DNA of 52,416 nt from a virus. Below the pieces are notes generated by a model that did not search any database, was not told where the DNA came from, and saw only the letters and a program-made list of their open reading frames with translations. Positions 248-34,227 of the stretch are shown piece after piece. The stretch lies in the IMG/VR virus record IMGVR_UViG_3300032242_000872, positions 1-52,416 of that record; one strand, given 5' to 3'. The position numbers and the translations under genes are program-made. Within the stretch, counting starts at the first letter, position 1, and every line of letters starts with the position of its first letter.

Positions 248-2398
248 ATGCCATTACAAAAACTACAGCTACGTCCAGGATTAAACCGAGAGGGTACCAA
301 CTACTCTAACGAGGGTGGATTTTATGATGGTGATAAAGTACGCTTTCGTTCAGGGTTTCCTGAAAAGATTGGAGGCTGGGTTCGTTTAAGTACAGCTAAC
401 TTCCTAGGAATATGCCGTTCTATGTGGAACTGGGCCACTTTAAATAATTCAAACTATTTAGGTATTGGTACAAATTTAAAATATTATGTTGAAAGTGGTG
501 GTAATTACAACGACATTACTCCAATTGTTGCAACAGTCAACGAAACAAATGCTATAACCACAGGATTTACTACGTTAGTAAGCACTATCAATGCTACAAC
601 AACTACATTTACTATAAATAATGGTAATAACTTCCCACCGCAAAACGGGGTAGTTAAGATTAATTCTGAAGTTATTTTTTACAATACCTTAAGTAGCAAC
701 GTTGCTACAAACTGTATTCGTGGATATGCAAATACTACGGCAGCTTCTCATACCGCTGGTGCGAACGTAGCTAGTGCTTTCTTTATTTTAAAAGACTCAA
801 ACAATGACGTAAATGACAGAGACTTTGTTATTGTTTCTAACTGTTCTGTATCTTCTGTTGGCGGTATTGCTAATACAACGATTAATGGTGAACACCAGAT
901 ATTTAAGTATTCAACAAACGTAGAATACGCATTAGCTACTACAGCTGATAACAATTTAGCCAATGTTACTTATTGCACCTCTGCTGTTTCTAATACCGCC
1001 AATGTCACTGTTGCTAATGAATATCCTGTAGGTTTGGCTGTTTACTCTCTTGGTACAGGTTGGGGAGCAGGTCCTTGGAGCCGTGGTGGATGGGGTTCTG
1101 CTTATACTGGTGCTGGTATTGGTCAGCAATTACGCCTTTGGTCTAATGATAACTTTGGCGAAAACTTAGTTTTAGCTCCTCGTGGCGGTGCTATTTTCTA
1201 TTGGTATGGAGCTGGTGGTCTTGGTACAAGGGCACAATATTTGTCTGATTTATCTACAAATTTAGGATTTCAAGGCGCTTATGTACCAAACACAACAAAC
1301 CAAATTATTGCCTCTGCTATTCAACGATTTGTTATTGCTTACGGTGCAAACTCTTATTTAAATGGTACTCCAGCAACTACGTTTGATCCAATGCTAGTAC
1401 GCTGGTCAGACCAAGAAAACCCTTATGATTGGGTTCCTTCTGTAACAAACCAAGCTGGCGAGTTCCGTTTATCCAACGGATCTTCTATTATTTGCGCCAA
1501 AGCAACCCGTCAAGAGATTCTGGTTTGGACTGATTCGGCTATATATTCCCAGCAATATTTAGGTCCTCCCTACGTTTGGGGCTTTAACATTTTGATGGAC
1601 AACATTTCTATCATATCCCCCAACTCAGCTATTACGATTAATAACGTAACTTATTGGATGGGAACTGATAAGTTCTATATGTACTCTGGTCGTGTAGAAA
1701 CTCTGCCTTGTGCGCTTCGTCAATATATCTTTTCCGATATTAATAGAGACCAAGGTTATCAAGTTACTTGCGGTGGTAATGAAGGATATAACGAAATTTG
1801 GTGGTTCTATTGTTCTACTAACAGTACCCAGATTGATAAATATGTGATTTATAACTATTTAGAACGTGTTTGGTATTACGGAGCAATTAATCGTACTGCA
1901 TGGTTAGATTCTGGTATTCGTCAAAATCCAATGGGAACATTTATAAATGGTGTAGATGATGTAGGAAATCCATTAGGACGGGTTGTATACCATGAAGTAG
2001 GTACGGATGATGCTTCTGGTATTGCTACAGTTCCTATTGTTTCCTATGTTCAATCTTCAGACTTTGACATTGGAGATGGGCATAACTTTGGGTTTGTCTG
2101 GCGTATGCTGCCTGACGTAAACTTTAACGGTTCTAACGTAGACCAGCCATCTGTAGTAATGGAAGTTCAACCACGGCAAAACAGTGGATCTGCTTATGGA
2201 ACATCTGATACTCCTACTGTAACCAGTGCTGATAACTATGTTTTGTATCCACAGTACACAATTCAGCAGTTTACTGGTCAGGTTTATACCCGTCTTAGAG
2301 GCCGTCAAATGGCGTTTAAGATTAGCTCAGACAAGCTAGGCGTTGCTTGGCAGTTAGGTAGCCCACGTATTGATATTAAAAACGATGGCAGAAGATGA
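248..2398 (+). CDS. Large tail protein (nozzle/hub candidate)
   Basis: A 716-residue protein starting LQLRPGLNREGTNYSNEGG with the motif KVRFRSGFPEKIGGW, and ending in MAFKISSDKLGVAWQLGSPR. Begin and end signatures of this sort recur in short-tailed phages, in proteins of similar size encoded beside the head-tail genes. The role is probably like T7 gp12 or P22 gp10 (tail nozzle/stabilisation), but this is inference. Residues about 109-175 form a separate beta-type insert with RGYANTTAASHTAGANV, matched by a segment of the connector protein at 48738-49661. The protein is rich in Asn, Thr, Gly and aromatic residues, as expected for beta-structure, and has no signal peptide. Its stop overlaps the next start by 4 bases. 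Confidence 0.6.
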   Translation: MPLQKLQLRPGLNREGTNYSNEGGFYDGDKVRFRSGFPEKIGGWVRLSTANFLGICRSMWNWATLNNSNYLGIGTNLKYYVESGGNYNDITPIVATVNETNAITTGFTTLVSTINATTTTFTINNGNNFPPQNGVVKINSEVIFYNTLSSNVATNCIRGYANTTAASHTAGANVASAFFILKDSNNDVNDRDFVIVSNCSVSSVGGIANTTINGEHQIFKYSTNVEYALATTADNNLANVTYCTSAVSNTANVTVANEYPVGLAVYSLGTGWGAGPWSRGGWGSAYTGAGIGQQLRLWSNDNFGENLVLAPRGGAIFYWYGAGGLGTRAQYLSDLSTNLGFQGAYVPNTTNQIIASAIQRFVIAYGANSYLNGTPATTFDPMLVRWSDQENPYDWVPSVTNQAGEFRLSNGSSIICAKATRQEILVWTDSAIYSQQYLGPPYVWGFNILMDNISIISPNSAITINNVTYWMGTDKFYMYSGRVETLPCALRQYIFSDINRDQGYQVTCGGNEGYNEIWWFYCSTNSTQIDKYVIYNYLERVWYYGAINRTAWLDSGIRQNPMGTFINGVDDVGNPLGRVVYHEVGTDDASGIATVPIVSYVQSSDFDIGDGHNFGFVWRMLPDVNFNGSNVDQPSVVMEVQPRQNSGSAYGTSDTPTVTSADNYVLYPQYTIQQFTGQVYTRLRGRQMAFKISSDKLGVAWQLGSPRIDIKNDGRR

Positions 2399-2703
2399 GT
2401 ACAGGAACTACTAAATCCCCTAACTTGCCGATTGCGCCTGTTGAATATAGCCAGCAGTATCAAGACCAGCTTAATAACGTCTTGCGCCTGTACTTTTCCC
2501 AATTGGATAACCCTGGCCCATCAGCCATGTCTACCCAACGAAACGGTGGAAAAGTCATAGCTCCAGCCATTAACTGTAGCGAAGCTAATGCTACTAATGT
2601 AAGAGTTTTAAGCCTTCCAGATCAAACCGAATTAGCTAATATTTCAGTAGGCACTGTCTACGTAGATCTTACCGCTGGAAACGTTTTGAAAGTTAAGGTT
2701 TAA
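2395..2703 (+). CDS. Conserved-looking small protein, unknown
   Basis: A 102-residue protein whose ATG overlaps the upstream stop (ATGAG), implying translational coupling to the large tail protein. The N-terminal half (VEYSQQYQDQLNNVLRLYFSQLDN) looks like an amphipathic helix and the C-terminal half is short beta-type sequence (VRVLSLPDQTELANISVGTVYVD). There is no transmembrane segment or cysteine motif. Position between tail and internal-virion genes suggests a virion or assembly protein. I do not recognise a named family. Confidence 0.7.
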   Translation: MSTGTTKSPNLPIAPVEYSQQYQDQLNNVLRLYFSQLDNPGPSAMSTQRNGGKVIAPAINCSEANATNVRVLSLPDQTELANISVGTVYVDLTAGNVLKVKV

Positions 2704-2741: not shown

Positions 2742-4694
2742 ATGAGCCTAAAAGAAGCAGCCCAATACTTACAATCCCAAGGTCGTGGTACAGACTCTAG
2801 GCTTATGCACGTTTCTCCACAGGAGTTACAAAGCCTGCAAACCCTTGCTATGGCTAAAGGTGGATCTTTAACTATTAATCCACATACGGGTTTACCCGAA
2901 GCTGGATTTCTTGAAGATGTTCTTCCTGTAGCAGCTGCTGGCGCTATGATGGCTTTTGCCCCAGAAGCAGCCCCATTCATTGGTGAAGGTCTAGGGCTAG
3001 GCACTGGCGCACTAGGTACTGGTGTTGGCATGGGTTTATTGGCTGGTGGATCACAAGCTGTTGGACAGTTATTGACAACTGGAAAGTTGGACTTAAATTC
3101 TGCTTTGCGTACAGGCGCTATTTCTGGATTGACAGCTGGTGCAATTAAAGGTTTTAGTGGTACTGCCCCTCCTACATCAAATGTAAAGACTGATGTTCCA
3201 GCTTTAAACATATTAAGCCAATCTCCTACTATTCCAGGCGCTGATACATCAATTATTACTACTCCAACTGTTAATAGCGGAACACAGCCAATTAATCCTG
3301 CTTCATTTAATAACGCTGTTACTACAGCTGAAGATGCAGCTGGATATGCTGGTGCAAATAACCAAGTTGCTGGAACTTCTCCGTATAATCCAAGTCCTAC
3401 TACTGCCCCTCCAGCAGTAGATAAATCATGGTGGTCTAGCCTTAGTTCAGGTCAAAAATTAGCAACAGGTCTTGGTGGTGTTGCAGGACTTTCATTGTTA
3501 GCGGGTGCTAACCAGCCAAAGATTCAGACTCCAGCATCTACGTCTTATATAAGACCTTACACTTATGCTCAGACTCGTAATCCTAATTATGGTCAGCCTG
3601 GACAAAGTTACTATAACCAAAGTTATACAGCCCAACCTATATTTAAAGCAGCCCAAGGTGGTTTAATGGGCGGTCCAGTTGAGCAAATGAGTCAAATTAA
3701 TGCTGGTCAAACTAACTATCCACAATCAGGATTGGATCATGCTACTTATGCTGTTCCAAGCCAAATGCCAACAAGCGCAGAGGTAGTTAACTCTGATTAT
3801 GACGTAAATACTAATCCGTATACAGGCGATTTAAAACGTATGGCAGCTGGAGGATCTACTGATTCTGGTTACATTCCTACATCTCAGGCCGTTCAAGATT
3901 ACAACAAAATGTTATCTAGCCGTGCAGTAGAAGAGTATTTAAATAACCCAATGCCCTCTGCAATGATGCCAGCATCACAGCGCCCAGCGTTGGCTGCTGC
4001 TCCAGCACAAGCTCCTCAAACACCACCAATTGGTCAAGATATTAATGGTTTATACCAATATTACTTAGGTAGACAACCAAGCAAAGATGAAGTGGGCCAA
4101 TGGGCTAGTCAAATTAATGGACCTGTAACACCTGATATGGCTAATTATTTCCAACAGTTTACTGGTGGTGAGCTGGCTAAAACTGGCTATAAGCCAACAG
4201 GCCCTAATCCATTTTTAGGTCAAGCTGGTCTACCAATGAATGGACCTGCAAGTTCTTTAGCTGGTCAAACTGGATTGCCACAATACACTTATAACCAAGC
4301 TACTCGTAGTTATACCCCAGTAGCCCAGCAATACACTCCTTTTGTACAGCCAGCAGTAGCTGCGCCAGTTCCTGATTCTTCTAGCGGTGGTGGTAAAGCT
4401 GGCGGTTTGATGCCTTATAACTTAGGCGGATACTCAGATGGTGGTCGTTTATTGAAAGGGCCTGGAGATGGTATGTCGGACAATATTCCAGCATCTATTG
4501 GTGATAAACAGCCAGCACGTTTGGCTGATGGTGAGTTTGTTGTTCCTGCTGACGTTGTGTCGCATCTTGGTAACGGCTCTACTGATGCTGGTGCAAAGAA
4601 GCTCTATGCCATGATGGATAAAGTTCGCACGGCTCGTACTGGAAATAAGAAACAAGGTAAGGAAATTAAAGCGGAGAAGTTCTTAAAAACATGA
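2742..4694 (+). CDS. Internal virion / ejection-type protein with GEFVVPADVVSHLG tail motif
   Basis: A 650-residue protein. Residues about 60-130 are hydrophobic and Gly/Ala-rich (AAAGAMMAFAPEAAPF, GLGLGTGALGTGVGMGLL), resembling membrane-inserting stretches of phage ejection or tape-measure proteins. The middle is low-complexity Pro/Gln/Ser/Tyr sequence. The C-terminal 90 residues carry GPGDGMSDNIPASI, ARLADGEFVVPADVVSHLG and GAKKLYAMMDKVRTARTG, a module I know from many phage virion proteins, where it is often found at the end of tape-measure-like chains. It is first of four genes ending in the giant protein, matching the T7 internal-core block by order and size class. Start chosen by the GAGG ribosome site upstream. 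Exact role unproven. Confidence 0.6.
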   Translation: MSLKEAAQYLQSQGRGTDSRLMHVSPQELQSLQTLAMAKGGSLTINPHTGLPEAGFLEDVLPVAAAGAMMAFAPEAAPFIGEGLGLGTGALGTGVGMGLLAGGSQAVGQLLTTGKLDLNSALRTGAISGLTAGAIKGFSGTAPPTSNVKTDVPALNILSQSPTIPGADTSIITTPTVNSGTQPINPASFNNAVTTAEDAAGYAGANNQVAGTSPYNPSPTTAPPAVDKSWWSSLSSGQKLATGLGGVAGLSLLAGANQPKIQTPASTSYIRPYTYAQTRNPNYGQPGQSYYNQSYTAQPIFKAAQGGLMGGPVEQMSQINAGQTNYPQSGLDHATYAVPSQMPTSAEVVNSDYDVNTNPYTGDLKRMAAGGSTDSGYIPTSQAVQDYNKMLSSRAVEEYLNNPMPSAMMPASQRPALAAAPAQAPQTPPIGQDINGLYQYYLGRQPSKDEVGQWASQINGPVTPDMANYFQQFTGGELAKTGYKPTGPNPFLGQAGLPMNGPASSLAGQTGLPQYTYNQATRSYTPVAQQYTPFVQPAVAAPVPDSSSGGGKAGGLMPYNLGGYSDGGRLLKGPGDGMSDNIPASIGDKQPARLADGEFVVPADVVSHLGNGSTDAGAKKLYAMMDKVRTARTGNKKQGKEIKAEKFLKT

Positions 4695-5110
4695 TAGAAG
4701 TCTCTATGGTTCCCTCATCGTATGTAGATACTTGTTGGGACAAGATAGAGCCTTTTGCAGAGAAAGCAGCAAAGTATACCTACGGAAGATACACTGCTAA
4801 TAACATCTATGACAAGGTTAAAGATGATGCTTATCAGATGTGGGTTGCTTATGATGATGGTACGTTTAAAGGTTTAGTAGTAACAGAAGTTGTAACCTAC
4901 CCACAAAGAAAGTTGCTAAGTATGCACTTTTGCGGTGGAATAGAGTTAAAAGAATGGAAAGATCCTATGTTAAAGCTGCTTCAAAGGTTTGGAAAAGACA
5001 TGGGATGTGACGGAATAGAATCAGTCGGAAGACCTGGCTGGGGAAAAGTATTTGAACAAGATGGTTACAAAGCATTATGGGTAACCTATGAATTACCAAT
5101 TGGAGAATAG
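4691..5110 (+). CDS. GNAT-like acetyltransferase-fold protein (T7 gp13-like position)
   Basis: A 139-residue protein with the look of a GNAT fold: an N-terminal helix-rich part (VDTCWDKIEPFAEKAAKY), a central beta part (YQMWVAYDDGTFKGLVVTEVV) and a C-terminal helix-strand pair (LLQRFGKDMGCDGIESVGR, then GYKALWVTYELPI). The classical Q/RxxGxG/A acetyl-CoA loop is not clear, so catalysis is doubtful. It overlaps the upstream gene by 4 bases and lies between two ejection-type proteins. A protein of the same size and fold type, gp13, is encoded at this place in T7-like phages and is needed for internal-core assembly. That parallel is inference. Confidence 0.5.
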   Translation: MIEVSMVPSSYVDTCWDKIEPFAEKAAKYTYGRYTANNIYDKVKDDAYQMWVAYDDGTFKGLVVTEVVTYPQRKLLSMHFCGGIELKEWKDPMLKLLQRFGKDMGCDGIESVGRPGWGKVFEQDGYKALWVTYELPIGE

Positions 5111-5112
5111 AT

Positions 5113-7242
5113 ATGGGTAAAGGCTCTAGCCAACCAGCGCCATCACAGCAGTCAACGAATAACACTTCGATACCTTCATATGCACAGCCATATGTTGAGC
5201 AGATGCTTGGGCAGACCGCTGCATTAACAGACATTAATCAAAACCCATACCAAAACTATGGCGGTCAACGTGTTGCAGGGTTTACCCCAATGCAGACTCA
5301 GGCTATGACCAATGTAGGTAATATGCAAATTGCTCCTCAGTTAGGGCAAGCTACTGGATATGCTGGTCAAGCTGGTCAAGGTTATCTTGGTACTACAGGC
5401 GCTGCAATGGGTTATGGTCAGCAAGGTGCTGGATATGGTCAGCAAGCCACAGGTGCTGGGCAGGCATATCAGACGATGGCTACTGATCCTAGCCAAGTTC
5501 AAAAGTACATGAACCCCTATATTCAAGATGCTCTTAATCCACAGCTTCAATTATTAAATCAACAACAAGCATTACAAGGTCAAGGAATTGCAGCAAAGGC
5601 TGCAGGCCAAGGTGCATTTGGTGGTAATCGTGCAGCTTTGTCTCAAGGTTTAAATGCTCAGAACTATGCATTAGCTGGTCAACAAGCGATTGGTCAAGGT
5701 TATAGCGATGCATTTAAAGCAGCTCAACAAGCTCAACAGTTTGGTGCTGACTTAGGTTTACGTGGCTTACAAACTGGCATACAAGGCGCTCAAACAGGTT
5801 TACAAGGAATTAATGCTGCACAAGCTGGTTATGGTGGAGCTAATCAAGCAGCTGCTACATTAGGTCAATTAGGTCAAACTCAGTATGGTCAACAGATGGG
5901 TATCAACCAAGCTCAAATGCAAGCTGGCGCTATGCAACAAGCATTGCAACAACAAGGACTTGATGTTAACTATCAAGACTTCCTTAAAGAGCGTAACTAT
6001 CCATATCAGCAATTGGCTTTCCAATCAGATATGTTGCGTGGCTTACCGTTGTCTCAGTCTGCACAAACTATTTACTCAGCTCCTCCTAGCGCTGCCTCAC
6101 AAATTGGTGGTATTGGAACCGCTGGTTTAGGTATCTATGGTATGTCTGGAGGCTTTAAAGCCAAAGGAGGTATGGTAGGCGAAGGCTATGCCAAAGGCGG
6201 TAAGATTAGCTATGCAAGCGGTGGTGATATCTCAATGATGTCTACCGAGCAATTACAGCAATTATTAGATAGTCCAACACTGACTCCTATGGAATCAGCC
6301 ATGATTGAGCAGCAATTAATGCTTCGTGCTCGCATGGAGAATAATCCAAAGTCAGCTCAGATTATGAACAGTGGTCTGCAATCTCAAGGCGGTGGTTTAG
6401 ATACCATTCCTTCTGGAGATACATTTAATGCTGCTGGTGGCGGTATTGTAGCGTTTTCTGGAGAGACTGATGGGAGCTTGGTTCGTTCCAGCGAAAGATC
6501 TAGCACTCCAAAACCTATTCGACCAGAGATTAAAGATTATCAAAGTTTTTTAGAAAGTCAAATTCGTTCCTCTTTAGAAAATCAAGATAAAGTAAATCCT
6601 TTTGCTAAGTCTGAAGAACTTCAATCTCAATATGCAGAAGATATGAAAGCTCGCAGAGAACAGCGTCCTTATGAGCTTTTGACAGCTTTAGGATTAGGAA
6701 CTGCGGCTGGAACATCTCAATATGGTTTATCTAATTTAGGTCAAGGCGGTGTTTATGCTCTTCAACAACAGCAAAAACTGTCAGCTGAAGACGCTTCTGA
6801 TCGCAAACTTATGCTTCAACAAGCAGTTGAGCAAGAGAAATCTAAGTATGCCCGTGATACTGGCAAACTTGGTTCTATGCAAACAGCTCTTGGTCAAATG
6901 TATAGTAAAGAGATTGGACTTAAAAACGCTAACGCATCAGCAGCAAGTACTGCTGCATATCGTGATCAATTATTGGCTCAGAAATATGCAACTCTTTGGA
7001 AAGATACATTGGATGACACCAAGAACAGCCTCTTGAAACAAACTAAGTTCAATACTATTTATATGAAAGATCCTGTAAAATTCAATCGTTTAGCTGAACA
7101 AGAGGCAAAACGCAATATGCCTCCAGCTGCTCTTGATATACTTGGAAAAACTCCAGCTTTGATGGATACTGACGTTAGTAGCGGAACTTCTGCGCCAACT
7201 GGAAAAGCTCCAGCATTGCCAAAAGGTTTTGTAATACAGTAA
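5113..7242 (+). CDS. Gln/Gly/Ala-rich internal virion protein
   Basis: A 709-residue protein. Residues about 60-310 are strongly Q/G/A-rich with repeated YGQQ, GYGQQATGAG and LQTGIQGAQTGLQ segments, suggesting long helices or a flexible domain. Around residue 350 come KAKGGMVGEGYAKGG and ISYASGG, short tags also seen in the neighbouring 650-aa protein and in the small proteins at 46-50 kb. The C-terminal third is helical and charged (RSSLENQDKVNPFAKSEEL). No enzyme motif is visible. By order it corresponds to the middle internal-core proteins of short-tailed phages (T7 gp14/gp15 region). Ribosome site AGGAG is weak; the start lies 2 bases after the GNAT-like gene. Confidence 0.55.
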   Translation: MGKGSSQPAPSQQSTNNTSIPSYAQPYVEQMLGQTAALTDINQNPYQNYGGQRVAGFTPMQTQAMTNVGNMQIAPQLGQATGYAGQAGQGYLGTTGAAMGYGQQGAGYGQQATGAGQAYQTMATDPSQVQKYMNPYIQDALNPQLQLLNQQQALQGQGIAAKAAGQGAFGGNRAALSQGLNAQNYALAGQQAIGQGYSDAFKAAQQAQQFGADLGLRGLQTGIQGAQTGLQGINAAQAGYGGANQAAATLGQLGQTQYGQQMGINQAQMQAGAMQQALQQQGLDVNYQDFLKERNYPYQQLAFQSDMLRGLPLSQSAQTIYSAPPSAASQIGGIGTAGLGIYGMSGGFKAKGGMVGEGYAKGGKISYASGGDISMMSTEQLQQLLDSPTLTPMESAMIEQQLMLRARMENNPKSAQIMNSGLQSQGGGLDTIPSGDTFNAAGGGIVAFSGETDGSLVRSSERSSTPKPIRPEIKDYQSFLESQIRSSLENQDKVNPFAKSEELQSQYAEDMKARREQRPYELLTALGLGTAAGTSQYGLSNLGQGGVYALQQQQKLSAEDASDRKLMLQQAVEQEKSKYARDTGKLGSMQTALGQMYSKEIGLKNANASAASTAAYRDQLLAQKYATLWKDTLDDTKNSLLKQTKFNTIYMKDPVKFNRLAEQEAKRNMPPAALDILGKTPALMDTDVSSGTSAPTGKAPALPKGFVIQ

Positions 7243-7258: not shown

Positions 7259-10200
7259 ATGCAAAAAGCGGTTAATCCCCAGACGGGGGAGGTGTTGTTC
7301 CTTGTTGACAATCAATGGGTAAAACCAACACAGACCGCTATCAACCCCGATACTGGGGAGAATGCATTCCTTGTAAATAACGCTTGGCAAGTCATGCCAA
7401 TGCCAAAGCCAGCTGAACCTATCGTTTCTCCAGAAGAGCAAATGATGTCTTCTGTTGGACAAACTAGCCAACAACAGCCTTCTGCAGGTGTACTTTCTGG
7501 GACTACCCTACCAGCTAATCCGCCCCCTATGGGTAACAGAGATATCTCGGAAGTAGGCACAGCTTTACCTATTACTAAAGATCTGCCCAAGCTAGATGTC
7601 AGCCAAATGCCTACTGCAGAGGAAAGGGCTGTTGCTAATTTTGGTATTAGCCCTGAGATGGGTTTTGGCGAGAAGGCTTTACGCACTGCTAAAGGCGCTT
7701 TATATGGCGCATCCACAGGTTTAGAACAAAGCTGGGCTGGTGGAGCACGTTTAATTGCCGATATAACTGGTATTAATAAAGAAGAAGTAGCCTCTGCAAG
7801 CAGACAACTTGGTAAAGAACAGGCTGCCGTTGAAAAAACCTATGCCCCTGAATATGGATTTAAGATAGCCAAAGATATTGGCTCATCGGTAGTCCAGAAC
7901 ATTCCAACGATTGGAGCTGGTTTATACGCTGGAACCAGTTCTGCATTAACAAATATGTTCCTGCAGTCATTTACTCAGACTTATGACGACAGTCGTAATG
8001 AAGGATTAGGCGTTGGTGAAAGTACGGTACGCTCTACCCTCTATGGTACAGCCGAGGCATTAGGCGAAAGCCTAGGCCTTCCTAACCTATTAAAAGGCGT
8101 TAAAGGTGCTTTAAAGGGCGTTCCTACGGTAGATCTTGCCAAGGACATGGCTAAGTACATCCTTAAAGAGATTCCAGGAGAGCAGTTCACCTATGTGTCT
8201 CAGTTTTTGACAGACAAAGGGTTTGGTCTAAACCCAGAAGCTGGATTGACAGAGTTCTTACAGGGTGCTCAAGATACCGCTTTGGTCACGGTTGGCCAGA
8301 CTGCCATTATGGGTGGTGGTCTTGGGGCTACCAACAAGATTCTCAAAGAGCTACGTGGTCTTCACTCTAAGGGTGATGAAGGCATTCCTAATGCAGCTGA
8401 TATGGTTAAGCAAGCTGGATTTAATTTTCAAAGACCAGAACCACAAGGGCAGGTAACAATTCAAGGTGCTCCACCAGAGGCGGTAATGCCACCTCAAACA
8501 GCTCCTACTGCTCCAGGAGAGGTTGCTCCATCACGAGCTGTTATTCAAGAAGGTGAGATTGAAGTTCCAGAAGAGGAGGGGGTAACAGCTGTTACACCTA
8601 CAACTGTAGTTCCTAAAAAACCAACATTTGTAAAGAAACCCAATGATCCAGCCATTGAAGCAGAGGCAATAGCTATTGCTGATGAGCTAGATAAGCTAGG
8701 TGAAAAAGGATTTGCTATCGGATTTCGTTCTAAGATTGAAAAAGATGGTGGTCTAACTAAGTCAGAAGATTTGAATTTCTATCGTAATAAATTGCTTGAG
8801 GCACAACAAAAAGCTGGCAAGGCTGAAGAAATGCCACAAGAAAAATTTAATATTGAAAACTATTTGCCAAGCTCAAATAAAGCAGAAGTTAAGCGATTTA
8901 ATCAGTACGTGCCAAATGCGCCAGAACCTGTGCGGGAAATGGTTGGCAAGTCTAATGAATACTTACAAAAGCTTACAGACAAAATCAACAGCCTTGGTTA
9001 TAAGGTATTGGATGTAGACACCAGAGCGCCACAGGAAATTCAAGAATTAAAAAGAAAAATTAGCAATATTGCTGGATCAACATTTGCCTATACAAAAAAT
9101 GCAGAGCATATTGATAAAAACAATCGTTTTGCTAATCCAGACAAATTTGAAAATATTGCTCAGACTTTAGAAAAAGATTTTGCAGATGCAGATCAATTAC
9201 TTGGTATAGAGGCTGCTAAACCACAGGCAACTGAAGTTGTGACTGAAGAAGAACAATTACCTAAATTCTCTCAGGCAGAAAACGTACCAGTCATTCCTGA
9301 AGGGCAAACTGTAGATTCTACTAATCCAGAAGTTCTTAAAAAATTCAATGAGATTATTGAAACTTATGAACCAGAAAGTGGTATCTCGCAGGAAGATAGT
9401 TTTTTATCTGCTATTAATGAAGATGTTCAATCAAAAATTGAAGAAACAAAAGCGCCTCCATTTAAAAAGGGATATGTATCTACAGTTAGTTATGAAGTAG
9501 CCCCATTTAATGGTGGATGGGTAGGCGGTAGCAGCATTATGAGTGCTACTGGTGGCTATGCTTCTGGAGCCAGTATTTGGGATAAGGTTTACCCAACTAA
9601 ACAAGAAGCAATCAATGCACAAATTGATGAACTTCGTGATTCAGCTAAGATTTATGGCAATACCAAAGCATTGGCATGGTTAGATTCTGTTGATCCACGT
9701 TTAACCAAAGAATCCAAAATTGAAACTAATAAAGTTCGTCAGACTGAGAAGAAAACTAAAGCCAAGCCAATAGAAAAGCCTGTTGAAAGGGTAAAGCCAG
9801 TAGAGGCTAAAGAAGAAAAACCAGTTACTACTGAAGCTCTTGAAAAAGCCGTAACTAAAGCTGGAGAGAAAGTTGATTACGACAAGATCAAGAAGTCTGC
9901 TGAGAATCAAATAAATCAAGCCATCAAGCGCACTAAATACATGACCGAAGAAGCGTACAAAGATGCCAAGATTCCAGATGCGGAACGCTTTGTCACTATC
10001 AAACTTGAGGGCGATGGATCATTTAAAGTAAAGAATAATAAAGAACGTCTTGAAGAGTTTAAGAAAAAGTTAGTAAACGCTATCAAGCCTAAACAAGCTG
10101 GCACTCCACGAAGAGAATGGGAAAGCGCAGCTGTAGGATTTAAGGCAGATTCTGCATTTAAAAATTTCCTAAATGAGAAAGAGCCTGAAACAGCGATAGC

Positions 10201-13200
10201 TATTGCCAACTTGACTAAACTAGATATTAAAAAAGTTAAATTAAATGATGCCCAGCAAAAGGTATTAAACGACTACATTAAAGCTGCCAAAGAGGTTGGT
10301 AATGAGCCAATGATGGAGACTATTAAGTCTAAGCCAGGCGCTAACGTAGCTCGTATTGCTAAGTTATTAGGCCCACAGCTATATGGCAGCATGAGTGATA
10401 TCTCTAATGTGTCAGTTAAAGAAATGCTCCAAAACTCGTTTGATGCCATAAAAACTATGATTGAAAATGGCACGATTACACAAGGCAATATTAATATTGA
10501 TGTAGATAAAGACACTCGTACCATTGCAGTCACTGATGATGGTAGCGGTATGGATTCAGATGTTTTAGCAAATACTTTCTTTACCATTGCTGGAACAAAA
10601 AAGGAAACTGAGTTTGGATCTGGTGGTTTTGGTATTGCTAAAATGTTATTTTTATTTGGTAATGAAAACGTAGAAGTTATTACCATGCGTGATGGCAAAA
10701 TCAGCAGTATGCAGTCTACTGGCAAAAACTTGATGGCTGCCTTAGAAGATCCAGCATTTGCCCCTAATATTGAAGTAGATGACAAGAGCGAGTGGCCTGA
10801 CTACGAGAAGATGTTTCCTAAAGGTCATGGAACATTTGTACGAGTAACTGTTCCAAAGGAATACAAGGATCAGTCTACTGGTGAAATGAAAGAGATTAAG
10901 TTCACAGACAGTAAATATGCTTATCCTGTTTTGGAAAATAGCCCGTTGTTTGCTAACATCAATGTTAAGTTTAACGATGATACCGTTTGGGATATGGGTA
11001 CTGAGTTCCCAGCAAACGAATACACAACCTTTGTTGATGCTAATTTTGATTGGGGAACTGCTCGAATTTATGTTTCTAAAGATCAAAAAGATCAGTGGGG
11101 AGATAACCTTCACATTCTTTCCAATGGTTTATGGCAATTCAGCCAGGGAATGAAGTTAAATCCAATGGAAATGTTTGGCAAAAACATTCCACATAGGTTT
11201 TACCTTGATGTTGTTTCTAAAGTTAAGCCAGATGAAGAGGGCTATCCATTCCAACTAAACCGCCAAGGATTTACCAAGGAAGCTGAAAGCGATCTGGATT
11301 TAATTAAAAAATATTTGACGCTGCACTACCAGCAAAAAGACTTTGATACATCAGCTAAGACATTTGGCACAGTCCAATATCTTGGAAGAGAAAGAAGTTT
11401 ATTTGGTAAAGATAAAGGAATTAGCGTATCCGAGACAATTAACTTAATTCCAGAATCTCCAAAAGTAAAAGAAGTAGATGGAATTGAAGAAGGTTCTCAA
11501 GTAGAAGTTAAAAACGGTAAATTAATTGTTAACGGCAAAGTTGTACCAGTATTAACGCCAGAAGATATGAAAAAAGCTGCCATAAACATCGATGAATTGC
11601 AGATACCTCAAAGTAGTATTAACCCTAAGAAGGTTATGATCCATGACAATCTTGAGGTTAAAAATACAGATGGCACATTTTCTCCTATTACTCAGTTAGC
11701 TATAGATGAGTTTGGTGAAAGATTTCATGACTTTATGTTTAATCTTGGTGATGCTTTTATGGCATTAAGAGATGCTACAGCAAGATTGATGCCAGCAGAT
11801 AGAAAAGGCATAGACTATAAAAACTTAGCCAAAGAAGCTATTGGTATATCCTTTGACAAAGAATATCGTGGCGTTAGTATTACATTGCCATTCAAAGGCT
11901 TATTTATTAACCCAGCATTCCCAGAGTTTATAGATACGCCAGAAGAGGCAGCTTTGGGTATGTTTGGAACTATGATCCACGAACTAGCTCACCACAAGGT
12001 TCGCAACCACGGGGCTGATTTCCCAGCGGAAATGCAACGTATCATTATTAAATTGGAGTCCGCACCTTCTTTAGATATTCAGCAGCTCAAGAAAGATTTA
12101 ATCTTGACAGTTAAAGAAAATATGGACATTATTAAGTTCTTAAATAAAGAGGGATCAAATGAATCTAACAGGCCTATTGGACAGCGTTTCAAAGATAGCC
12201 AGTACCAAAAACGAGGCGAAGATACTTCTGCAGACCTTTCTAAACGAGGGAAGCAACAGCGGGGAGAACCCAGAGTATCTAGCGAGTCTGAGTCAGGGAT
12301 TGAAGATATTAGAGAAGAGCGAGAACTTGAACCAGTTTCGTCAGAAGGTAAAGGCTCAAAGTCAGACATAGAAGAAGTACAAAATCTTCTAAAGAAACAC
12401 GCTCGTTCTAATACTCCATTACATCCTAGTAATGAAGTAGCAGATGCCTTTATGGGATCTGTGCAAAAAGGCAAAAAGATCTACTCAAGGGTTAAAGAAA
12501 ATCCAATGATGGTTGCTCCAGCCATGATTAGTAAGTTAGATCGTGCCACTACCTTTGCTCGTAACAAAAATATCTGGTATGGAACTGGCCTAGAACAAGC
12601 AGACTTTGCAAAATACAATGGCCAATTGCGCACTGGTCAAGGAGATGCTATTGCATCATTAGCAGTAACGAATGCTATTCATGCGGGCCACGTAGGAACC
12701 CAAGTATTAATTGAAGGAAATTTACAATATAACCCTGTTACCCAACAGTTTCAATCTGTAAAGAGTGATAAGTCAATGGCAAATGTCATTACTTTGAAGT
12801 CTAAACTTATGAAAAAATTAGGAGATCAAGAAGCGACTGATCTTATTAATGGCTATTTTGAGGCTAAACGTTCACGTTCAATTATTAATGAATATTTAAA
12901 TCGTGAAGGGGCTTATGTCAAAGCGATTGAAGAGGGTGAAGATGAGGCTACAGCATCTAAGAATTTAAAAAATATTGAAGTAGCTATGCAAAAAGTAAAC
13001 ATGGATGATGATCAAATTGATGAGTTCATTGCCATGGATAAGAAGTTCCCAGAGCTACGTCAAATGATGGATAACTGGACTGCAGTAAACCATAATATGT
13101 TAGATAACATGGTTTTCTCAGGAGTCATTAGTAAGCGCAGAGCAAAAGATTTAAAAGCTATCAAGGACTATGTTCCTTGGTATAGGATTATGGATGAGCA

Positions 13201-15136
13201 AGCTGATATTCATCAGCCTACTGGTGGTGTAGTTCGCACCTTAACAAACGTAAGCCAGGACAAAAAGTTTAAAAAAGGTGTAGTAAACAGAGATATTGAT
13301 GACATTGTGGATAACATGATTCACAACGTTATGATGATGACTCGAAATTCTATGCGTAACTATGCTGCAAATCGTGTAGTTGCCGAATATGGAACTAGAA
13401 AAGAAAATGGCAAATTAAAAGTATTTTCAACTGAAGGTCGTGATAGCGATGGAGTACGTTTTAATATTATTGCTAATGGCCGTAGAATTATTGTTCAGAT
13501 AAAAGATCCGCTGATTGCTGAGTCAGTCATTGGTATGGAAAACATTGAGATTCCAATGAACAAAATATTGGCTGCAATGGCTAACGGCTTGCGTAGAACT
13601 ATTACCTTCTCTGGTGTATTCCAAGTTAAACAGTTATTTATGGATGCTCCTACAGCTGCTTGGGTATCTGGACTTAAGAATCCATTTGCCGTATGGGGAG
13701 GCACGTTTAGTTCATTTTTACAGGCATTAAGAAATAATGATCCAATTGTAAAGATGTTTAAATCTTATGGTATTGGTGGTTTCCAATCAACATCTAGAAC
13801 TCCTGAGAAAGAATTAAAGCTAGAAATTGGATTATTAAATCATTCAAACTATGCCAAATTAATTAAATTCTTAGATCACGTTGGTGATTCTTCTGACTAC
13901 GCTCAACGTAGAGCTATCTACAAACGGGTAATGAAAGAAACATCAAAAACTGGTAAATGGCAAGATGGTGATCAGATGCAAGCGTTGTTGCAAGCTAACA
14001 ATGTTATTGACTTTCTTAAACATGGTAGTGGTCAAACGGCTCAGTTTTTAACCAGGACTGTATCTTTCATGAACGCTTATGCACAGCAGATTGATGTACT
14101 AGCTCAGACATTAGCTGGTGGTGGACTCAAGGGTAAGGATCGCCAAGAAGGACTCAAGCGCATGGCAATTACAGGTGGCTTATTGTCAATGACAACCCTG
14201 CTTTATTGCATGGCTGTAGGCGCTGACGATGACTATCAAGAACTGGATGATCAAACTAAGGCACGTAATTTATATATTCCTGGTTCTAAAAAAGCATTTG
14301 GCCATGCCGTAGTATTACCAATGCATACTTCAGCCAGTTTCTTCTTTAAGGCAATACCAGAGTTACTCTATAACAAGGTAATGAATCAAGGAACTAATAA
14401 CGAGATGGATAATACTCGTTTGCGTACTGCCTTAAAAGAGGCTGCAATTGATTCTTTATTAGGGCCAAATGCCGTTCCAACTGGTGCAAAGCCATTTATT
14501 GAGATTGGTTTAAATAGAAACTTCTTTACTGGCGGTCAACTTACTCCAAAAGGAATGGAAAATTTAGAGGCAGTTGAACAATATACTTCAGCTACTTCTG
14601 AGCTTGGCAAAGTATTTAGCGCCCTTACATCGGTTCCTGGAACAGATAAACGTGCATTAAATCCAATTGAGGCAGATCATTTGATGCGCAGTTTGTTTGG
14701 TTCTGTTGCTGCAATGTCAATGTGGGGATCTAATATGTTTGCTGGAGATCGTCCAGAAGGCCGTGTTAAAGACATTCCAGTAATTGGTCAGTTTGTATTA
14801 CCAGAAGTTCCACGTGGTAATGAGGCTATGTTCTATGACTTTAAAGAGCGTTCTGATGAAAAGTACAACACTTACATGAGAATGCTAGACCGCAACAAAA
14901 TTGATGAAGCCGATCAATATCTTGAGAAAAATATGGGATTGGTAGCTGCCCATGATTATGTAACCTCTATGGATAGTGGCTTAAAAGAGCTTAATAAGCA
15001 GATCCGCAATATTGGTGAAACGAAAGATCCTGATTACACCAAGTCGGAAAGACGTAAAGACATTACTGATCTTCAAGAAACAAAGAAAGATATTCTTGAT
15101 GGAATTGGTTTAATCAGAAAAGATTCAGGCCTGTAA
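7259..15136 (+). CDS. Giant polyvalent virion protein with GHKL ATPase and zincin motifs
   Basis: 2625 residues in one uninterrupted frame. Residues 4-20 and 27-43 are a tandem repeat of AxNPxTGExxFLVxNxW. A GHKL-type (Hsp90/gyrase-like) ATP-binding module is visible: N box EMLQNSFDA (1055-1063), G1 box DDGSGM (1093-1098) and glycine-rich G2 loop GSGGFGIAK (1120-1128). A zinc metallopeptidase motif HELAHH follows at 1574-1579 (H1574, E1575, H1578). The C-terminal ~500 residues (from about 2100) are helical and resemble the domain named LPD38 in large polyvalent proteins. Such multi-enzyme proteins are known to be injected with phage DNA. The N-terminal third is low-complexity with no recognised fold. 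Last gene of the virion block, followed by hairpins. Family assignment is inference from motifs. Confidence 0.8.
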   Translation: MQKAVNPQTGEVLFLVDNQWVKPTQTAINPDTGENAFLVNNAWQVMPMPKPAEPIVSPEEQMMSSVGQTSQQQPSAGVLSGTTLPANPPPMGNRDISEVGTALPITKDLPKLDVSQMPTAEERAVANFGISPEMGFGEKALRTAKGALYGASTGLEQSWAGGARLIADITGINKEEVASASRQLGKEQAAVEKTYAPEYGFKIAKDIGSSVVQNIPTIGAGLYAGTSSALTNMFLQSFTQTYDDSRNEGLGVGESTVRSTLYGTAEALGESLGLPNLLKGVKGALKGVPTVDLAKDMAKYILKEIPGEQFTYVSQFLTDKGFGLNPEAGLTEFLQGAQDTALVTVGQTAIMGGGLGATNKILKELRGLHSKGDEGIPNAADMVKQAGFNFQRPEPQGQVTIQGAPPEAVMPPQTAPTAPGEVAPSRAVIQEGEIEVPEEEGVTAVTPTTVVPKKPTFVKKPNDPAIEAEAIAIADELDKLGEKGFAIGFRSKIEKDGGLTKSEDLNFYRNKLLEAQQKAGKAEEMPQEKFNIENYLPSSNKAEVKRFNQYVPNAPEPVREMVGKSNEYLQKLTDKINSLGYKVLDVDTRAPQEIQELKRKISNIAGSTFAYTKNAEHIDKNNRFANPDKFENIAQTLEKDFADADQLLGIEAAKPQATEVVTEEEQLPKFSQAENVPVIPEGQTVDSTNPEVLKKFNEIIETYEPESGISQEDSFLSAINEDVQSKIEETKAPPFKKGYVSTVSYEVAPFNGGWVGGSSIMSATGGYASGASIWDKVYPTKQEAINAQIDELRDSAKIYGNTKALAWLDSVDPRLTKESKIETNKVRQTEKKTKAKPIEKPVERVKPVEAKEEKPVTTEALEKAVTKAGEKVDYDKIKKSAENQINQAIKRTKYMTEEAYKDAKIPDAERFVTIKLEGDGSFKVKNNKERLEEFKKKLVNAIKPKQAGTPRREWESAAVGFKADSAFKNFLNEKEPETAIAIANLTKLDIKKVKLNDAQQKVLNDYIKAAKEVGNEPMMETIKSKPGANVARIAKLLGPQLYGSMSDISNVSVKEMLQNSFDAIKTMIENGTITQGNINIDVDKDTRTIAVTDDGSGMDSDVLANTFFTIAGTKKETEFGSGGFGIAKMLFLFGNENVEVITMRDGKISSMQSTGKNLMAALEDPAFAPNIEVDDKSEWPDYEKMFPKGHGTFVRVTVPKEYKDQSTGEMKEIKFTDSKYAYPVLENSPLFANINVKFNDDTVWDMGTEFPANEYTTFVDANFDWGTARIYVSKDQKDQWGDNLHILSNGLWQFSQGMKLNPMEMFGKNIPHRFYLDVVSKVKPDEEGYPFQLNRQGFTKEAESDLDLIKKYLTLHYQQKDFDTSAKTFGTVQYLGRERSLFGKDKGISVSETINLIPESPKVKEVDGIEEGSQVEVKNGKLIVNGKVVPVLTPEDMKKAAINIDELQIPQSSINPKKVMIHDNLEVKNTDGTFSPITQLAIDEFGERFHDFMFNLGDAFMALRDATARLMPADRKGIDYKNLAKEAIGISFDKEYRGVSITLPFKGLFINPAFPEFIDTPEEAALGMFGTMIHELAHHKVRNHGADFPAEMQRIIIKLESAPSLDIQQLKKDLILTVKENMDIIKFLNKEGSNESNRPIGQRFKDSQYQKRGEDTSADLSKRGKQQRGEPRVSSESESGIEDIREERELEPVSSEGKGSKSDIEEVQNLLKKHARSNTPLHPSNEVADAFMGSVQKGKKIYSRVKENPMMVAPAMISKLDRATTFARNKNIWYGTGLEQADFAKYNGQLRTGQGDAIASLAVTNAIHAGHVGTQVLIEGNLQYNPVTQQFQSVKSDKSMANVITLKSKLMKKLGDQEATDLINGYFEAKRSRSIINEYLNREGAYVKAIEEGEDEATASKNLKNIEVAMQKVNMDDDQIDEFIAMDKKFPELRQMMDNWTAVNHNMLDNMVFSGVISKRRAKDLKAIKDYVPWYRIMDEQADIHQPTGGVVRTLTNVSQDKKFKKGVVNRDIDDIVDNMIHNVMMMTRNSMRNYAANRVVAEYGTRKENGKLKVFSTEGRDSDGVRFNIIANGRRIIVQIKDPLIAESVIGMENIEIPMNKILAAMANGLRRTITFSGVFQVKQLFMDAPTAAWVSGLKNPFAVWGGTFSSFLQALRNNDPIVKMFKSYGIGGFQSTSRTPEKELKLEIGLLNHSNYAKLIKFLDHVGDSSDYAQRRAIYKRVMKETSKTGKWQDGDQMQALLQANNVIDFLKHGSGQTAQFLTRTVSFMNAYAQQIDVLAQTLAGGGLKGKDRQEGLKRMAITGGLLSMTTLLYCMAVGADDDYQELDDQTKARNLYIPGSKKAFGHAVVLPMHTSASFFFKAIPELLYNKVMNQGTNNEMDNTRLRTALKEAAIDSLLGPNAVPTGAKPFIEIGLNRNFFTGGQLTPKGMENLEAVEQYTSATSELGKVFSALTSVPGTDKRALNPIEADHLMRSLFGSVAAMSMWGSNMFAGDRPEGRVKDIPVIGQFVLPEVPRGNEAMFYDFKERSDEKYNTYMRMLDRNKIDEADQYLEKNMGLVAAHDYVTSMDSGLKELNKQIRNIGETKDPDYTKSERRKDITDLQETKKDILDGIGLIRKDSGL

Positions 15137-19500: not shown

Positions 19501-19691
19501 TGAACGAACAAGATCTAAGAGATTGCTTTGCCATGTTTGCATTAAATGGAATATTGTCTTGCAATTATGACGTTGGCGAAGAACCAGCTGTATTGGCCTA
19601 TAAGTATGCAGATGAAATGCTTGAAGCTAGGTCTGGAAAAGGATCTGTTGGTTTACCTCCAGTGCGGGCACGGAAGGCTAAAAGTAAATGA
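19500..19691 (+). CDS. Small protein of the phage ADxM/ER family, second copy
   Basis: A 63-residue protein: RDCFAMFALNGILS, then EPAVLAYKYADEMLEARS and a basic C-terminus (PPVRARKAKSK). The FAMFALNG and YADEMLEAR blocks align with the products at 16895 and 22127. Probably an ancient duplication or repeated acquisition within the operon. Function unknown. Directly precedes the glycan cassette, with a 4-base overlap. Confidence 0.6.
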   Translation: MNEQDLRDCFAMFALNGILSCNYDVGEEPAVLAYKYADEMLEARSGKGSVGLPPVRARKAKSK

Positions 19692-20545
19692 AAAACATAT
19701 GTGTAGTTAATTTTTGGGATGGAGCGTTTGATGGAGACTTCTTTGATTTTTTCTTTCGCAGCTGTTTTGGGGACATTAATTACATTAGCGACCCTTACAC
19801 CGCTGATCTCATTGTTACTTCTGTGTTTGGAAACACGCAAACAGATCCCAATAAGACTCTTGCCTACATTGGCGAAAATGTACGACCTAGTTTTGTGGGC
19901 TATAGCCACAGCCTGTCTTTTGATTACGACACTTATGGCGGTAGGAATTTACGTTTACCGATCTGGTATGCTCGTTTAGCTTGGCCTGGATTCATTCAAA
20001 AACCTAGGAAACCCAATTTCCACAATCATGGCTATGAAGACCTTATTTCAATTGATTCCCTCACAAGGGGACGCACTCTTGATATGAGCCAAAAAACTAA
20101 GTTTTGTGCCATGGTTGCTGGAAATCCAGAAGGGTTGCGGGTTAATTTATTTAACTCCATTTCAGAATACAAGCGAGTAGATGGTTATGGGAATATGTTT
20201 AATCGTCCTTTACGCAAGTCAAAGTTTGATATTTTAAAAGATTACAAATTTAGCCTATGCCCTGAGAATTCAATCTATGACGGCTATGTAACTGAAAAGT
20301 TAATAGATGCCTACGCTGGCGGTACTGTGCCTATTTATAGTGGTGATGCGTCTGTGGCTGAAGACTTTAATTACATGGCTTTCTTGAACTACCAAGAAGT
20401 TATGGACATGGACTTTCTTGTTTCAAAGGTGGCTATGTTAAGTACAGACGACAGGTACTATCGAGAGATTTACGAACAACCGTTGCTAACTAAAGAACCT
20501 AAACTAAACGATGCGATTGCATTCGTAAGGAGCATAGTTAAATGA
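19688..20545 (+). CDS. GT10 (alpha-1,3-fucosyltransferase-like) glycosyltransferase
   Basis: A 285-residue protein. The C-terminal half has the GT10 donor-binding signature: KFDILKDYKFSLCPENS (CPENS at residues 191-195), then DGYVTEKLIDAY and GGTVPIYSGD. The N-terminal half lacks a signal anchor, as in bacterial GT10 enzymes such as H. pylori FucT. These use GDP-fucose (or a related nucleotide sugar) to modify lipopolysaccharide O-chains. It opens a five-gene glycan cassette. The acceptor could be host LPS, or a phage glycan. The match to the family is good; the donor and acceptor are unknown. Confidence 0.8.
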   Translation: MKNICVVNFWDGAFDGDFFDFFFRSCFGDINYISDPYTADLIVTSVFGNTQTDPNKTLAYIGENVRPSFVGYSHSLSFDYDTYGGRNLRLPIWYARLAWPGFIQKPRKPNFHNHGYEDLISIDSLTRGRTLDMSQKTKFCAMVAGNPEGLRVNLFNSISEYKRVDGYGNMFNRPLRKSKFDILKDYKFSLCPENSIYDGYVTEKLIDAYAGGTVPIYSGDASVAEDFNYMAFLNYQEVMDMDFLVSKVAMLSTDDRYYREIYEQPLLTKEPKLNDAIAFVRSIVK

Positions 20546-23519: not shown

Positions 23520-23750
23520 ATGGATGCAATATGGGAAAAAGCCAATCAGGTTAGTGAAGTAGGATATAAAATACATAGCGCTGCCATGATTGTAGAATTG
23601 GTTGCTGAAAGACTTACAGATAACGCTGAAAGTGGTGCTTTATGGGCTGCAGCTGAAATACTTAAACAATACAGTGAACAACTTGAAGAATTATCATCAG
23701 ATTTAATGGGTATTAATCGTAGTTTAGAAAAAAAAGGAAAAAAGAAATGA
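23520..23750 (+). CDS. Small helical protein, unknown
   Basis: A 76-residue protein: DAIWEKANQVSEVGYKI, HSAAMIVELVAERL, ALWAAAEILKQYSEQLEELS and a Lys-rich end (KKGKKK). All predicted helical. It follows the preceding stop with no gap and overlaps the next start by 4 bases. No family recognised. Confidence 0.6.
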   Translation: MDAIWEKANQVSEVGYKIHSAAMIVELVAERLTDNAESGALWAAAEILKQYSEQLEELSSDLMGINRSLEKKGKKK

Positions 23751-31076: not shown

Positions 31077-31230
31077 AGATGGTGGTAAGGGTGATGCACC
31101 TCGCCCATTGGTTGTGCCGATAGAAGAATTTGATAAGAACTTTGAAACAATCTTTGGTAAAAAAGAAAAGACTTACGAACCTATTCCATTTTTTGGTTTG
31201 ATTGAAAATGAGGATGAAGATGAGATTTGA
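31069..31230 (+). CDS. Conserved small phage protein (53 aa) upstream of primase
   Basis: ATG lies 8 bases before the helicase stop. The N-terminus TRDGGKGDAPRPLVVPIEEFDKNFE recalls a small protein present in many podovirus-type genomes, with a charged C-terminus (ENEDEDE). The GGKGDxPRPL start is the hallmark. Function unknown. It overlaps the primase start region. Confidence 0.65.
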   Translation: MTRDGGKGDAPRPLVVPIEEFDKNFETIFGKKEKTYEPIPFFGLIENEDEDEI

Positions 31231-34167: not shown

Positions 34168-34211
34168 AAGCCCTCCTAGCAGATAGTTATGATTACCAAA
34201 TGGCAATCCCT

Positions 34212-34227
34212 ATGCCCCGTAGGGCAT
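34212..34227 (-). promoter_or_regulatory. Hairpin between two accessory genes
   Basis: ATGCCC and GGGCAT form a perfect 6-bp stem with a 4-base loop. No T run follows in either direction, so it is not a standard terminator. It lies in the 74-base space between the genes at 34242-34463 and 33988-34167 and may tune downstream expression. Confidence 0.4.

What the first reader, a model, noticed from the sequence alone, without database searches (positions are those of the whole stretch)
7259..15136. 2625-residue protein with GHKL ATPase plus zinc-protease motifs inside a virion operon
One intact chain contains N, G1 and G2 boxes of a GHKL ATP-binding fold (KEMLQNSFDA, DDGSGM, GSGGFGIAK) and a HELAHH zinc motif, with an LPD38-like helical C-terminus. 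Polyvalent proteins that enter the host with phage DNA are described in the literature, but I do not know this specific combination. An injected Hsp90/MORC-like ATPase with an in-chain protease could disarm host defence or help ejection.
Basis: partly seen in the sequence, partly recalled or inferred. Interest (0 to 1): 0.72.

Follow-up and report, generated by a model that had tools for sequence, protein, structure and literature searches.

The report
Phage giant protein with ATPase-protease cassette
This uncultured phage carries a very large protein, probably injected with its DNA, that contains an Hsp90-like ATP-driven engine welded to a zinc protease; the pair is found, always together and with both active sites intact, in giant proteins of many other uncultured phages, but is in none of the family libraries or papers we could search.

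Summary
ORF 7259-15136 (2625 aa) is intact, and the named motifs sit at the named residues. Residues 1020-1647 form a cassette: a GHKL ATP-binding domain, a transducer-like middle domain, a beta linker, and a zincin with HExxHx5H. AlphaFold2 supports it (pLDDT 87 whole, 96 zincin alone). Residues 1020-1447 match Hsp90, topoisomerase VI-B, GyrB and MORC (Z about 20). The zincin matches Wss1 best (Z 8.6, moderate).

The cassette is a family. IMG/VR scans seeded separately from ATPase, middle and protease parts each found about 100 loci. Among distinct copies inspected, all 71 protease-seeded ORFs carry the ATPase in-chain, and all 69 middle-seeded copies keep HExxHx5H and the middle-domain Arg; complete copies keep the ATPase catalytic residues. 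It sits in giant ORFs, in 48 of 53 cases downstream of homologues of this phage's virion/ejection genes. Flanks vary. No full-module match was found in 50,697 cultured phage records, and Pfam, PHROGs and NCBIfam have no model of the pair.

Best reading: a two-enzyme cassette of polyvalent ejected proteins, an ATP clamp that gates a minigluzincin-like protease in the infected cell. Ejection, proteolysis and targets are inferred. Polyvalent proteins are known; this combination is a new variant.

The parts
7259..15136 (+). Giant ORF, 2625 aa, last gene of the virion/ejection cassette
   Evidence: AGAAAG upstream of the ATG
10316..12199 (+). Whole conserved cassette, residues 1020-1647: GHKL ATPase + middle domain + zincin
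   Evidence: Aligned over its length in 58 loci; AF2 pLDDT 87, pTM 0.74
10346..10912 (+). GHKL ATP-binding domain, about residues 1030-1218
   Evidence: Pfam HATPase_c_3, PDB profile hit TRAP1 E 2.3e-7, Foldseek/VIA
10418..10447 (+). N box KEMLQNSFDA; E1055, N1059, D1062
10535..10552 (+). G1 box DDGSGM (D1093)
10616..10642 (+). G2 box / ATP lid GSGGFGIAK
10823..10834 (+). GHGT motif (T1192), the later GHKL nucleotide motif
   Evidence: G1191 and T1192 invariant in 58; position
10913..11365 (+). Middle (transducer/S5-like) domain, about residues 1219-1369, with invariant R1335
   Evidence: Model residues 200-350 covered by Hsp90 / Topo VI-B / GyrB matches; R1335 69/69
11603..12199 (+). Zincin domain, residues 1449-1647
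   Evidence: AF2 pLDDT 96, pTM 0.92; best match Wss1 Z 8.6
11978..12013 (+). HELAHHKVRNHG, HExxHx5H motif (H1574, E1575, H1578, H1584)
   Evidence: 69/69 conserved with seeds outside the domain
14225..14785 (+). LPD38, large polyvalent protein associated domain (residues 2323-2509)
   Evidence: Pfam 1.1e-21
5113..7242 (+). Upstream 'DNA ejection protein' gene (709 aa)
   Evidence: phrog_4287 E 7e-16; homologue upstream of 44 of 53 relatives' giant ORFs
4691..5110 (+). Small conserved gene of the cassette (139 aa)
   Evidence: Weak PHROG hits of unknown function; syntenic in some relatives
2742..4694 (+). Conserved cassette gene (650 aa), no family
   Evidence: Homologue upstream of 45 of 53 relatives' giant ORFs
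2395..2703 (+). Small conserved gene of the cassette (102 aa)
   Evidence: Syntenic in relatives
248..2398 (+). Virion structural protein (716 aa)
   Evidence: phrog_3287 E 1e-59; syntenic

Best explanation
Residues 1020-1647 are a single two-enzyme machine carried inside a polyvalent, virion-packaged giant protein. A GHKL ATPase of the Hsp90 / Topo VI-B / MORC type (ATP pocket plus transducer-like middle domain) works as an ATP-driven clamp. A zincin of the Wss1/WLM/SprT-like (minigluzincin) type is attached through a beta linker. The most likely mechanism: the protein leaves the capsid with the DNA; ATP met in the host cytoplasm closes the clamp on a client, either a protein or DNA with proteins bound; closure positions or unlocks the zincin, which cuts proteins that would hinder the incoming genome (defence, nucleoid or regulatory proteins). 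Shown here: the domains, their obligate linkage, the conserved catalytic residues and the gene context. Inferred: ejection, ATP gating, protease activity and targets.
For: Domains: Pfam HATPase; profile hits TRAP1/Hsp90 E 2e-7 and Topo VI-B E 3e-4; hhalign to E. coli HtpG probability 93.5 over the N and G1 boxes; model matches Hsp90, Topo VI-B, GyrB and MORC over both ATPase and middle domain, Z 18-21. Zincin: YgjP-like hit in 31 and WLM in 12 of 58 members; top PDB matches are Wss1 (Z 8.6, 8.4, 8.3, 7.9), SPRTN Z 6.1. Obligate cassette: ATPase present in 71/71 zincin-seeded ORFs, zincin motif intact in 69/69 middle-domain-seeded copies. Pairwise identities of the two halves correlate at r 0.81, against 0.59 and 0.52 with the neighbouring ejection gene, so they appear to evolve as one unit. 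Catalytic residues of both enzymes, and R1335 where a transducer residue would lie, are invariant although the alignment averages 40% column identity. Gene context: downstream of virion/ejection gene homologues in 48 of 53 relatives; LPD38 described as phage-type polyvalent only. In cultured phages the LPD38-bearing matches lie under genes annotated as adenine methylase, DarB-like antirestriction or RelA/SpoT. Many giants carry a separate polyvalent-type zincin, so self-processing need not be the job of this one. Precedents: N4 giant RNA polymerase is ejected and has an HExxH domain (PMC12633501); Wss1 works with an ATPase, Cdc48, and is activated by DNA (PMC4559962).
Against: No virion proteomics and no enzymology: ejection, proteolysis and ATP hydrolysis are not shown. 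The zincin-to-Wss1 fold match is moderate (Foldseek E 0.3, Z 8.6), and 1oz9 (AQ_1354, to my knowledge a YbeY-family protein, a nuclease-type relative) scores close (Z 7.3). The middle domain has no sequence match in the PDB, and R1335 was not structurally superposed on the Hsp90/GHL catalytic residue. The window's own protein lacks the second zincin, so here this zincin could be the processing one. No target is identified and DNA binding is not tested.
Confidence: 0.5

Rival explanations
1. Self-processing: the zincin cuts the giant polypeptide into functional pieces after or during ejection, and the Hsp90-like part acts as an in-chain chaperone that folds or presents the chain to it.
For: Iyer et al. 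propose that zincin-like peptidases process polyvalent proteins (PMC5512222). The window protein has no other HExxH. Wss1 cleaves itself when activated (PMC4559962).
Against: 38 distinct sequences among the relatives carry a second, unrelated zincin of HExxH...E type before or after the cassette, which could already supply the described processing activity. A dedicated ATPase is not described as needed for processing in polyvalent proteins.
Confidence: 0.22
2. DNA entry or genome-organising role: the clamp binds phage DNA (as topoisomerase VI-B, GyrB and MORC do) and helps draw in, hold or compact the genome; the protease clears the internal core or ejection proteins.
For: Position directly after an ejection-protein gene; structural closeness to DNA-acting Topo VI-B, GyrB and MORC.
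Against: Equal closeness to Hsp90, which acts on proteins. ATP is not expected inside the capsid (general knowledge). No DNA-binding element was identified.
Confidence: 0.15
3. An rIIA/MORC-like counter-defence ATPase in which the zincin is structural or regulatory only.
For: rIIA proteins are prominent among the viral structural matches after one direct homologue; rIIA has an N-terminal GHKL ATPase and is considered counter-defence (PMC7824862).
Against: All three putative zinc-binding histidines and the catalytic Glu are kept in 69 of 69 distinct copies, as expected for an active enzyme. Most rIIA-like matches have aligned lengths of about the ATPase part only.
Confidence: 0.08

Closest known systems
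Polyvalent proteins of phages and conjugative elements (Iyer et al. 2017, PMC5512222)
   Same: Giant multidomain protein, LPD38, several enzymes in one chain, zincin present, encoded with virion/ejection genes
   Different: No GHKL/Hsp90 domain is mentioned there; described zincins use a Glu from a second helix as third ligand, here His five residues after HExxH; this zincin shows no profile similarity to the HExxH...E zincin of its own relatives beyond the motif
Hsp90 / HtpG / TRAP1
   Same: GHKL pocket plus middle domain, same order; best sequence hits and Z about 20
   Different: No Hsp90 C-terminal dimerisation domain identified; a zincin follows; embedded in a 2200-5500 aa phage protein
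MORC / topoisomerase VI-B / GyrB GHKL-S5 ATPases
   Same: ATPase plus S5-type transducer
   Different: No nuclease, Toprim or CW domain identified; fused to a protease-type domain
Wss1 / SPRTN (WLM, SprT) DNA-protein-crosslink proteases, minigluzincins
   Same: HExxHx5H motif and fold; Wss1 works with an ATPase (PMC4559962)
   Different: Longer domain, low identity (9-17%), partner ATPase is a GHKL clamp in cis rather than the AAA ATPase Cdc48
T4 rIIA family
   Same: Phage GHKL ATPase; structural match over the ATPase part
   Different: Not a giant ejection-cassette protein; no zincin reported in the source read (PMC7824862)
N4 giant virion RNA polymerase (gp50)
   Same: Ejected ~3500-residue protein with an HExxH domain (PMC12633501)
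   Different: Carries an RNA polymerase, no GHKL domain described in the passages read

Membership tests
GHKL ATPase superfamily | N box with catalytic Glu and Mg-binding Asn; DxGxG (G1); Gly-rich lid (G2); later Gly-Thr motif | tested here: met
   E1055, N1059, D1093, G1097, G1122, G1125 and T1192 present; invariant or nearly so in 58 and 69 relatives; Pfam above cut-off
GHKL ATPase superfamily | Bergerat fold | tested here: met
   AF2 model matches Hsp90, Topo VI-B, GyrB, MORC at Z 18-21
Hsp90 / MORC / Topo VI-B-type ATPase machines | Transducer (S5-type) domain directly after the ATPase with a catalytic basic residue | tested here: inconclusive
   Fold of model residues 200-350 lies inside the matches and R1335 is invariant, but residue-level superposition was not available and the middle domain has no sequence hit
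Hsp90 proper | C-terminal dimerisation domain and overall N-M-C architecture | tested here: inconclusive
   Matches end at model residue 428; a zincin follows where the C domain would be; the rest of the giant chain was not folded
Zincin metallopeptidase, minigluzincin-like (Wss1/WLM/SprT) | HExxH on a helix with third His ligand | tested here: met
   HELAHHKVRNH; H1574, E1575, H1578, H1584 in 69/69; motif helix 113-129 in the model
Zincin metallopeptidase, minigluzincin-like (Wss1/WLM/SprT) | Fold and sequence membership | tested here: inconclusive
   Best structural matches are Wss1 at Z 7.9-8.6 with 1oz9 at 7.3; YgjP hit below Pfam cut-off for the window (18.3 against 26)
Zincin metallopeptidase, minigluzincin-like (Wss1/WLM/SprT) | Zinc-dependent peptidase activity | not testable with these tools
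   Needs purified protein
Phage polyvalent proteins | Very large multidomain chain with LPD-type domains and unrelated enzymes | tested here: met
   LPD38 above cut-off; relatives have LPD38, LPD39, LPD22, ART-PolyVal
Phage polyvalent proteins | Encoded with virion/ejection genes | tested here: met
Phage polyvalent proteins | Packaged and injected with DNA | not testable with these tools
   No virion proteomics
Polyvalent-type MPTase zincin (Iyer et al.) | HExxH with Glu from a second helix as third ligand | tested here: not met
   Third ligand position is His1584 in the window and in 69/69; profile comparison with the relatives' HExxH...E zincin gives probability 12%, motif only

The most novel reading that the evidence does not exclude
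A phage injects an ATP-driven DNA or protein clamp carrying its own Wss1/SPRTN-like protease, which rides the incoming genome and strips host proteins (restriction, nucleoid or sensor proteins) from it: a proteolytic counter-defence machine acting in cis on the genome, analogous in placement to the DarB methylase-helicase dyad.
Probability: 0.2. Interest if true: 0.85.

Novelty: new variant of a known kind. Interest (0 to 1): 0.64.

Why it matters
Polyvalent ejected proteins are known to carry zincins, methylases, helicase-like ATPases, ART and RNase domains, but in the sources searched not a GHKL ATPase, nor an ATPase and protease fused as an obligate pair. An ATP-gated protease delivered at the first moment of infection would be a new kind of phage opening move, and the strict conservation of both active sites across diverse uncultured phages makes it directly testable with a 628-residue recombinant construct. 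It would also give a single-chain example of a Wss1-type protease coupled to a GHKL clamp.

Tried and rejected
Chance motifs: rejected (shuffles; profiles; structure). Frameshift or assembly fusion of two genes: rejected, since the same fusion recurs in about 70 distinct sequences from many samples. Seed bias (first relatives were found with N-box and lid peptides): tested by scanning again with only the middle domain and only the zincin; linkage and motifs held. Only the best 80 loci of each scan are kept, so weaker relatives (13 to 67 per scan) were not inspected. Metzincin membership (HExxHxxGxxH spacing): snake-venom metzincins give weak motif-level sequence hits and Val replaces the Gly; structure prefers Wss1. 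YbeY-type nuclease: 1oz9 is close in fold (Z 7.3), but the catalytic Glu of HExxH is kept in every copy, which to my knowledge YbeY lacks. Cellular homologues: the genome scan gave only one full-length relative, in a phage-like giant ORF of an Acidobacteria MAG contig (L087; HETTHVKVRSE, Glu at the third-ligand position), plus ATPase-only matches. Plasmids: ATPase-only hits. Ejection gene E in cultured phages: no match. PADLOC and NCBIfam: only generic GHKL or MORC-type restriction-enzyme hits, below cut-off where one is given. Middle domain against PDB sequences: nothing. Literature searches for the combination: none found, within an open-licence library only; supplementary files were not searchable.

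Full report
OBSERVATION. The ORF at 7259-15136 (+) is a single 2625-residue frame. Pfam gives HATPase_c_3 at 35 bits (cut-off 25) and LPD38 at 78 bits (cut-off 27). HExxHx5H occurred in 0 of 2000 shuffles of the protein.

CONTEXT. The window is a virus record of 52,416 bases without an exact terminal repeat. Terminase, portal and capsid genes lie at 36.6-45.4 kb and further virion genes to 51.3 kb. At the other end of the window lie a virion structural protein (248-2398), three unassigned or weakly assigned genes and a DNA ejection protein (5113-7242, phrog_4287), and then the giant ORF. Exonuclease and Erf recombinase genes follow.

RELATIVES. A first scan with the central region found four contigs (one sequence type) at 42% identity; pairwise alignment showed that only residues 1020-1647 are well conserved (50%), the flanks hardly. 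Scans of IMG/VR seeded from the ATPase (93 relatives), the middle domain alone (104) and the zincin alone (147) brought many more, 80 kept each. In the first set every relative has the module in a giant ORF, 2200-5500 aa where not cut by the contig end. There is no full-module match in 50,697 cultured phage records or 72,556 plasmids, and only one full-length relative in the genome collection, a phage-like giant ORF on an Acidobacteria MAG contig. The cultured-phage matches to the whole protein are to its C-terminal, LPD38-bearing region only.

OBLIGATE PAIR WITH INTACT ACTIVE SITES. In 69 distinct copies found with middle-domain seeds, H1574, E1575, H1578, H1584 and R1335 are all invariant; E1055, N1059, D1062 and D1093 are invariant in every copy whose contig reaches that far. 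R1335 lies in one of the middle-domain seed peptides, so its count is partly by selection; the other residues were not seeds. In 71 of 71 distinct ORFs found with zincin seeds the ATPase is in the same chain. In the 58-member alignment the invariant columns include the N, G1, G2 and later Gly-Thr motifs, R1335 and the zinc motif, while mean column identity is 40%. Pairwise identities of the ATPase and zincin halves correlate at r 0.81, but at 0.59 and 0.52 with the neighbouring ejection gene (alignment quality may contribute to that difference). The simplest reading is one functional cassette under selection for both activities.

STRUCTURE. AlphaFold2 with 58 sequences: pLDDT 87, pTM 0.74 for 628 residues; zincin alone pLDDT 96, pTM 0.92. 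The first 428 residues match HtpG/Hsp90/TRAP1 (Foldseek E to 5e-13) and MORC (E 2e-11), and Topo VI-B, Hsp90, GyrB and MORC3 at Z 18-21, covering both the ATPase and the middle domain. Sequence profiles agree: TRAP1 E 2e-7, Topo VI-B E 3e-4; HtpG by hhalign 93.5% over the N and G1 boxes. The zincin's best matches are four Wss1 structures (Z 7.9-8.6), then 1oz9 (7.3), BepA and SPRTN (about 6); by sequence, YgjP-like is matched by 31 and WLM by 12 of 58 members. These Z values are moderate, so 'Wss1-like' is a lead supported by motif, profile and fold together, not a proven membership.

GENE SYNTENY. Of 53 distinct giant ORFs with at least 3 kb upstream, 48 have a homologue of one of the five window genes upstream of the giant, 44 of the ejection gene and 45 of the 650-aa gene. 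Two of the five others have an endolysin-type domain in the gene just upstream (L058, L072), in keeping with an ejection cassette.

A SECOND, DIFFERENT ZINCIN. 38 distinct sequences among the relatives hold another HExxH domain (mostly HELLHAATNRK or HEVLHAATEAI) before or after the cassette, with a conserved Glu ~70 residues later, i.e. the kind described for polyvalent proteins (PMC5512222). It is not detectably related to the cassette's zincin (hhalign 12%, motif only). So the processing job proposed for polyvalent zincins often has its own candidate enzyme, which argues that the ATPase-linked zincin does something else. The window's protein lacks this second zincin, so self-processing is not excluded here.

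MECHANISM. GHKL machines with a transducer close as ATP clamps; Hsp90 closes on proteins, Topo VI, GyrB and MORC on DNA (established knowledge). ATP is expected only after entry into the cell. I therefore favour a clamp that closes on client protein or protein-covered DNA in the infected cell and places or unlocks the zincin there. Wss1 is a useful parallel: a latent minigluzincin activated by DNA and partnered with an ATPase (PMC4559962). The same type of giant LPD38 protein in cultured phages is annotated with methylase, DarB-like antirestriction or RelA/SpoT functions, which favours an early anti-host role. Shown: architecture, conservation, context. Inferred: ejection, ATP gating, proteolysis, targets.

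NOVELTY. The polyvalent-protein paper does not mention GHKL, Hsp90, HATPase, histidine kinase or gyrase; MORC appears only in a reference title. Pfam, PHROGs and NCBIfam have no model for the pair, and literature searches found no description. One homologue lies in the viral structure library (A0A516L4L2, 637 aligned columns, 32% identity), unnamed in the tables at hand. Verdict: a new variant of a known kind, an undescribed obligate two-enzyme cassette in polyvalent ejected proteins.

Noticed in passing
window 19688-22130: Three adjacent genes: family-10 fucosyltransferase, FkbM-type methyltransferase and a radical SAM/SPASM protein; a possible sugar- or surface-modifying cluster, unusual for a 52-kb phage genome.
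   Followed up: no
window 23747-24526: Weak Anp1-like glycosyltransferase hit just below the Pfam cut-off, near the fucosyltransferase cluster.
   Followed up: no
L002, L013, L010, L018, L036, L082 and others: A second, unrelated zincin (HExxH...E) in the same giant proteins, placed before the cassette in some and after it in others.
   Followed up: partly
L087:7307-15727 (Acidobacteria MAG contig): Divergent cassette member in a 2807-aa ORF with HETTHVKVRSE, i.e. Glu instead of His at the third-ligand position.
   Followed up: partly
L094, L095: Two close relatives of the window's module with Ala aligned at the G1-box Gly (G1095) and Ser at T1192; possibly an altered ATP site or a local misalignment.
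   Followed up: no
L063 and L085: Very large ORFs running off the contig start (5553 aa and 3529 aa seen) with the cassette beginning at residue 3331 in both.
   Followed up: no
window 31200-36650: Stretch with only short overlapping ORFs on both strands, GC 0.44 against 0.41 overall; gene content unclear.
   Followed up: no
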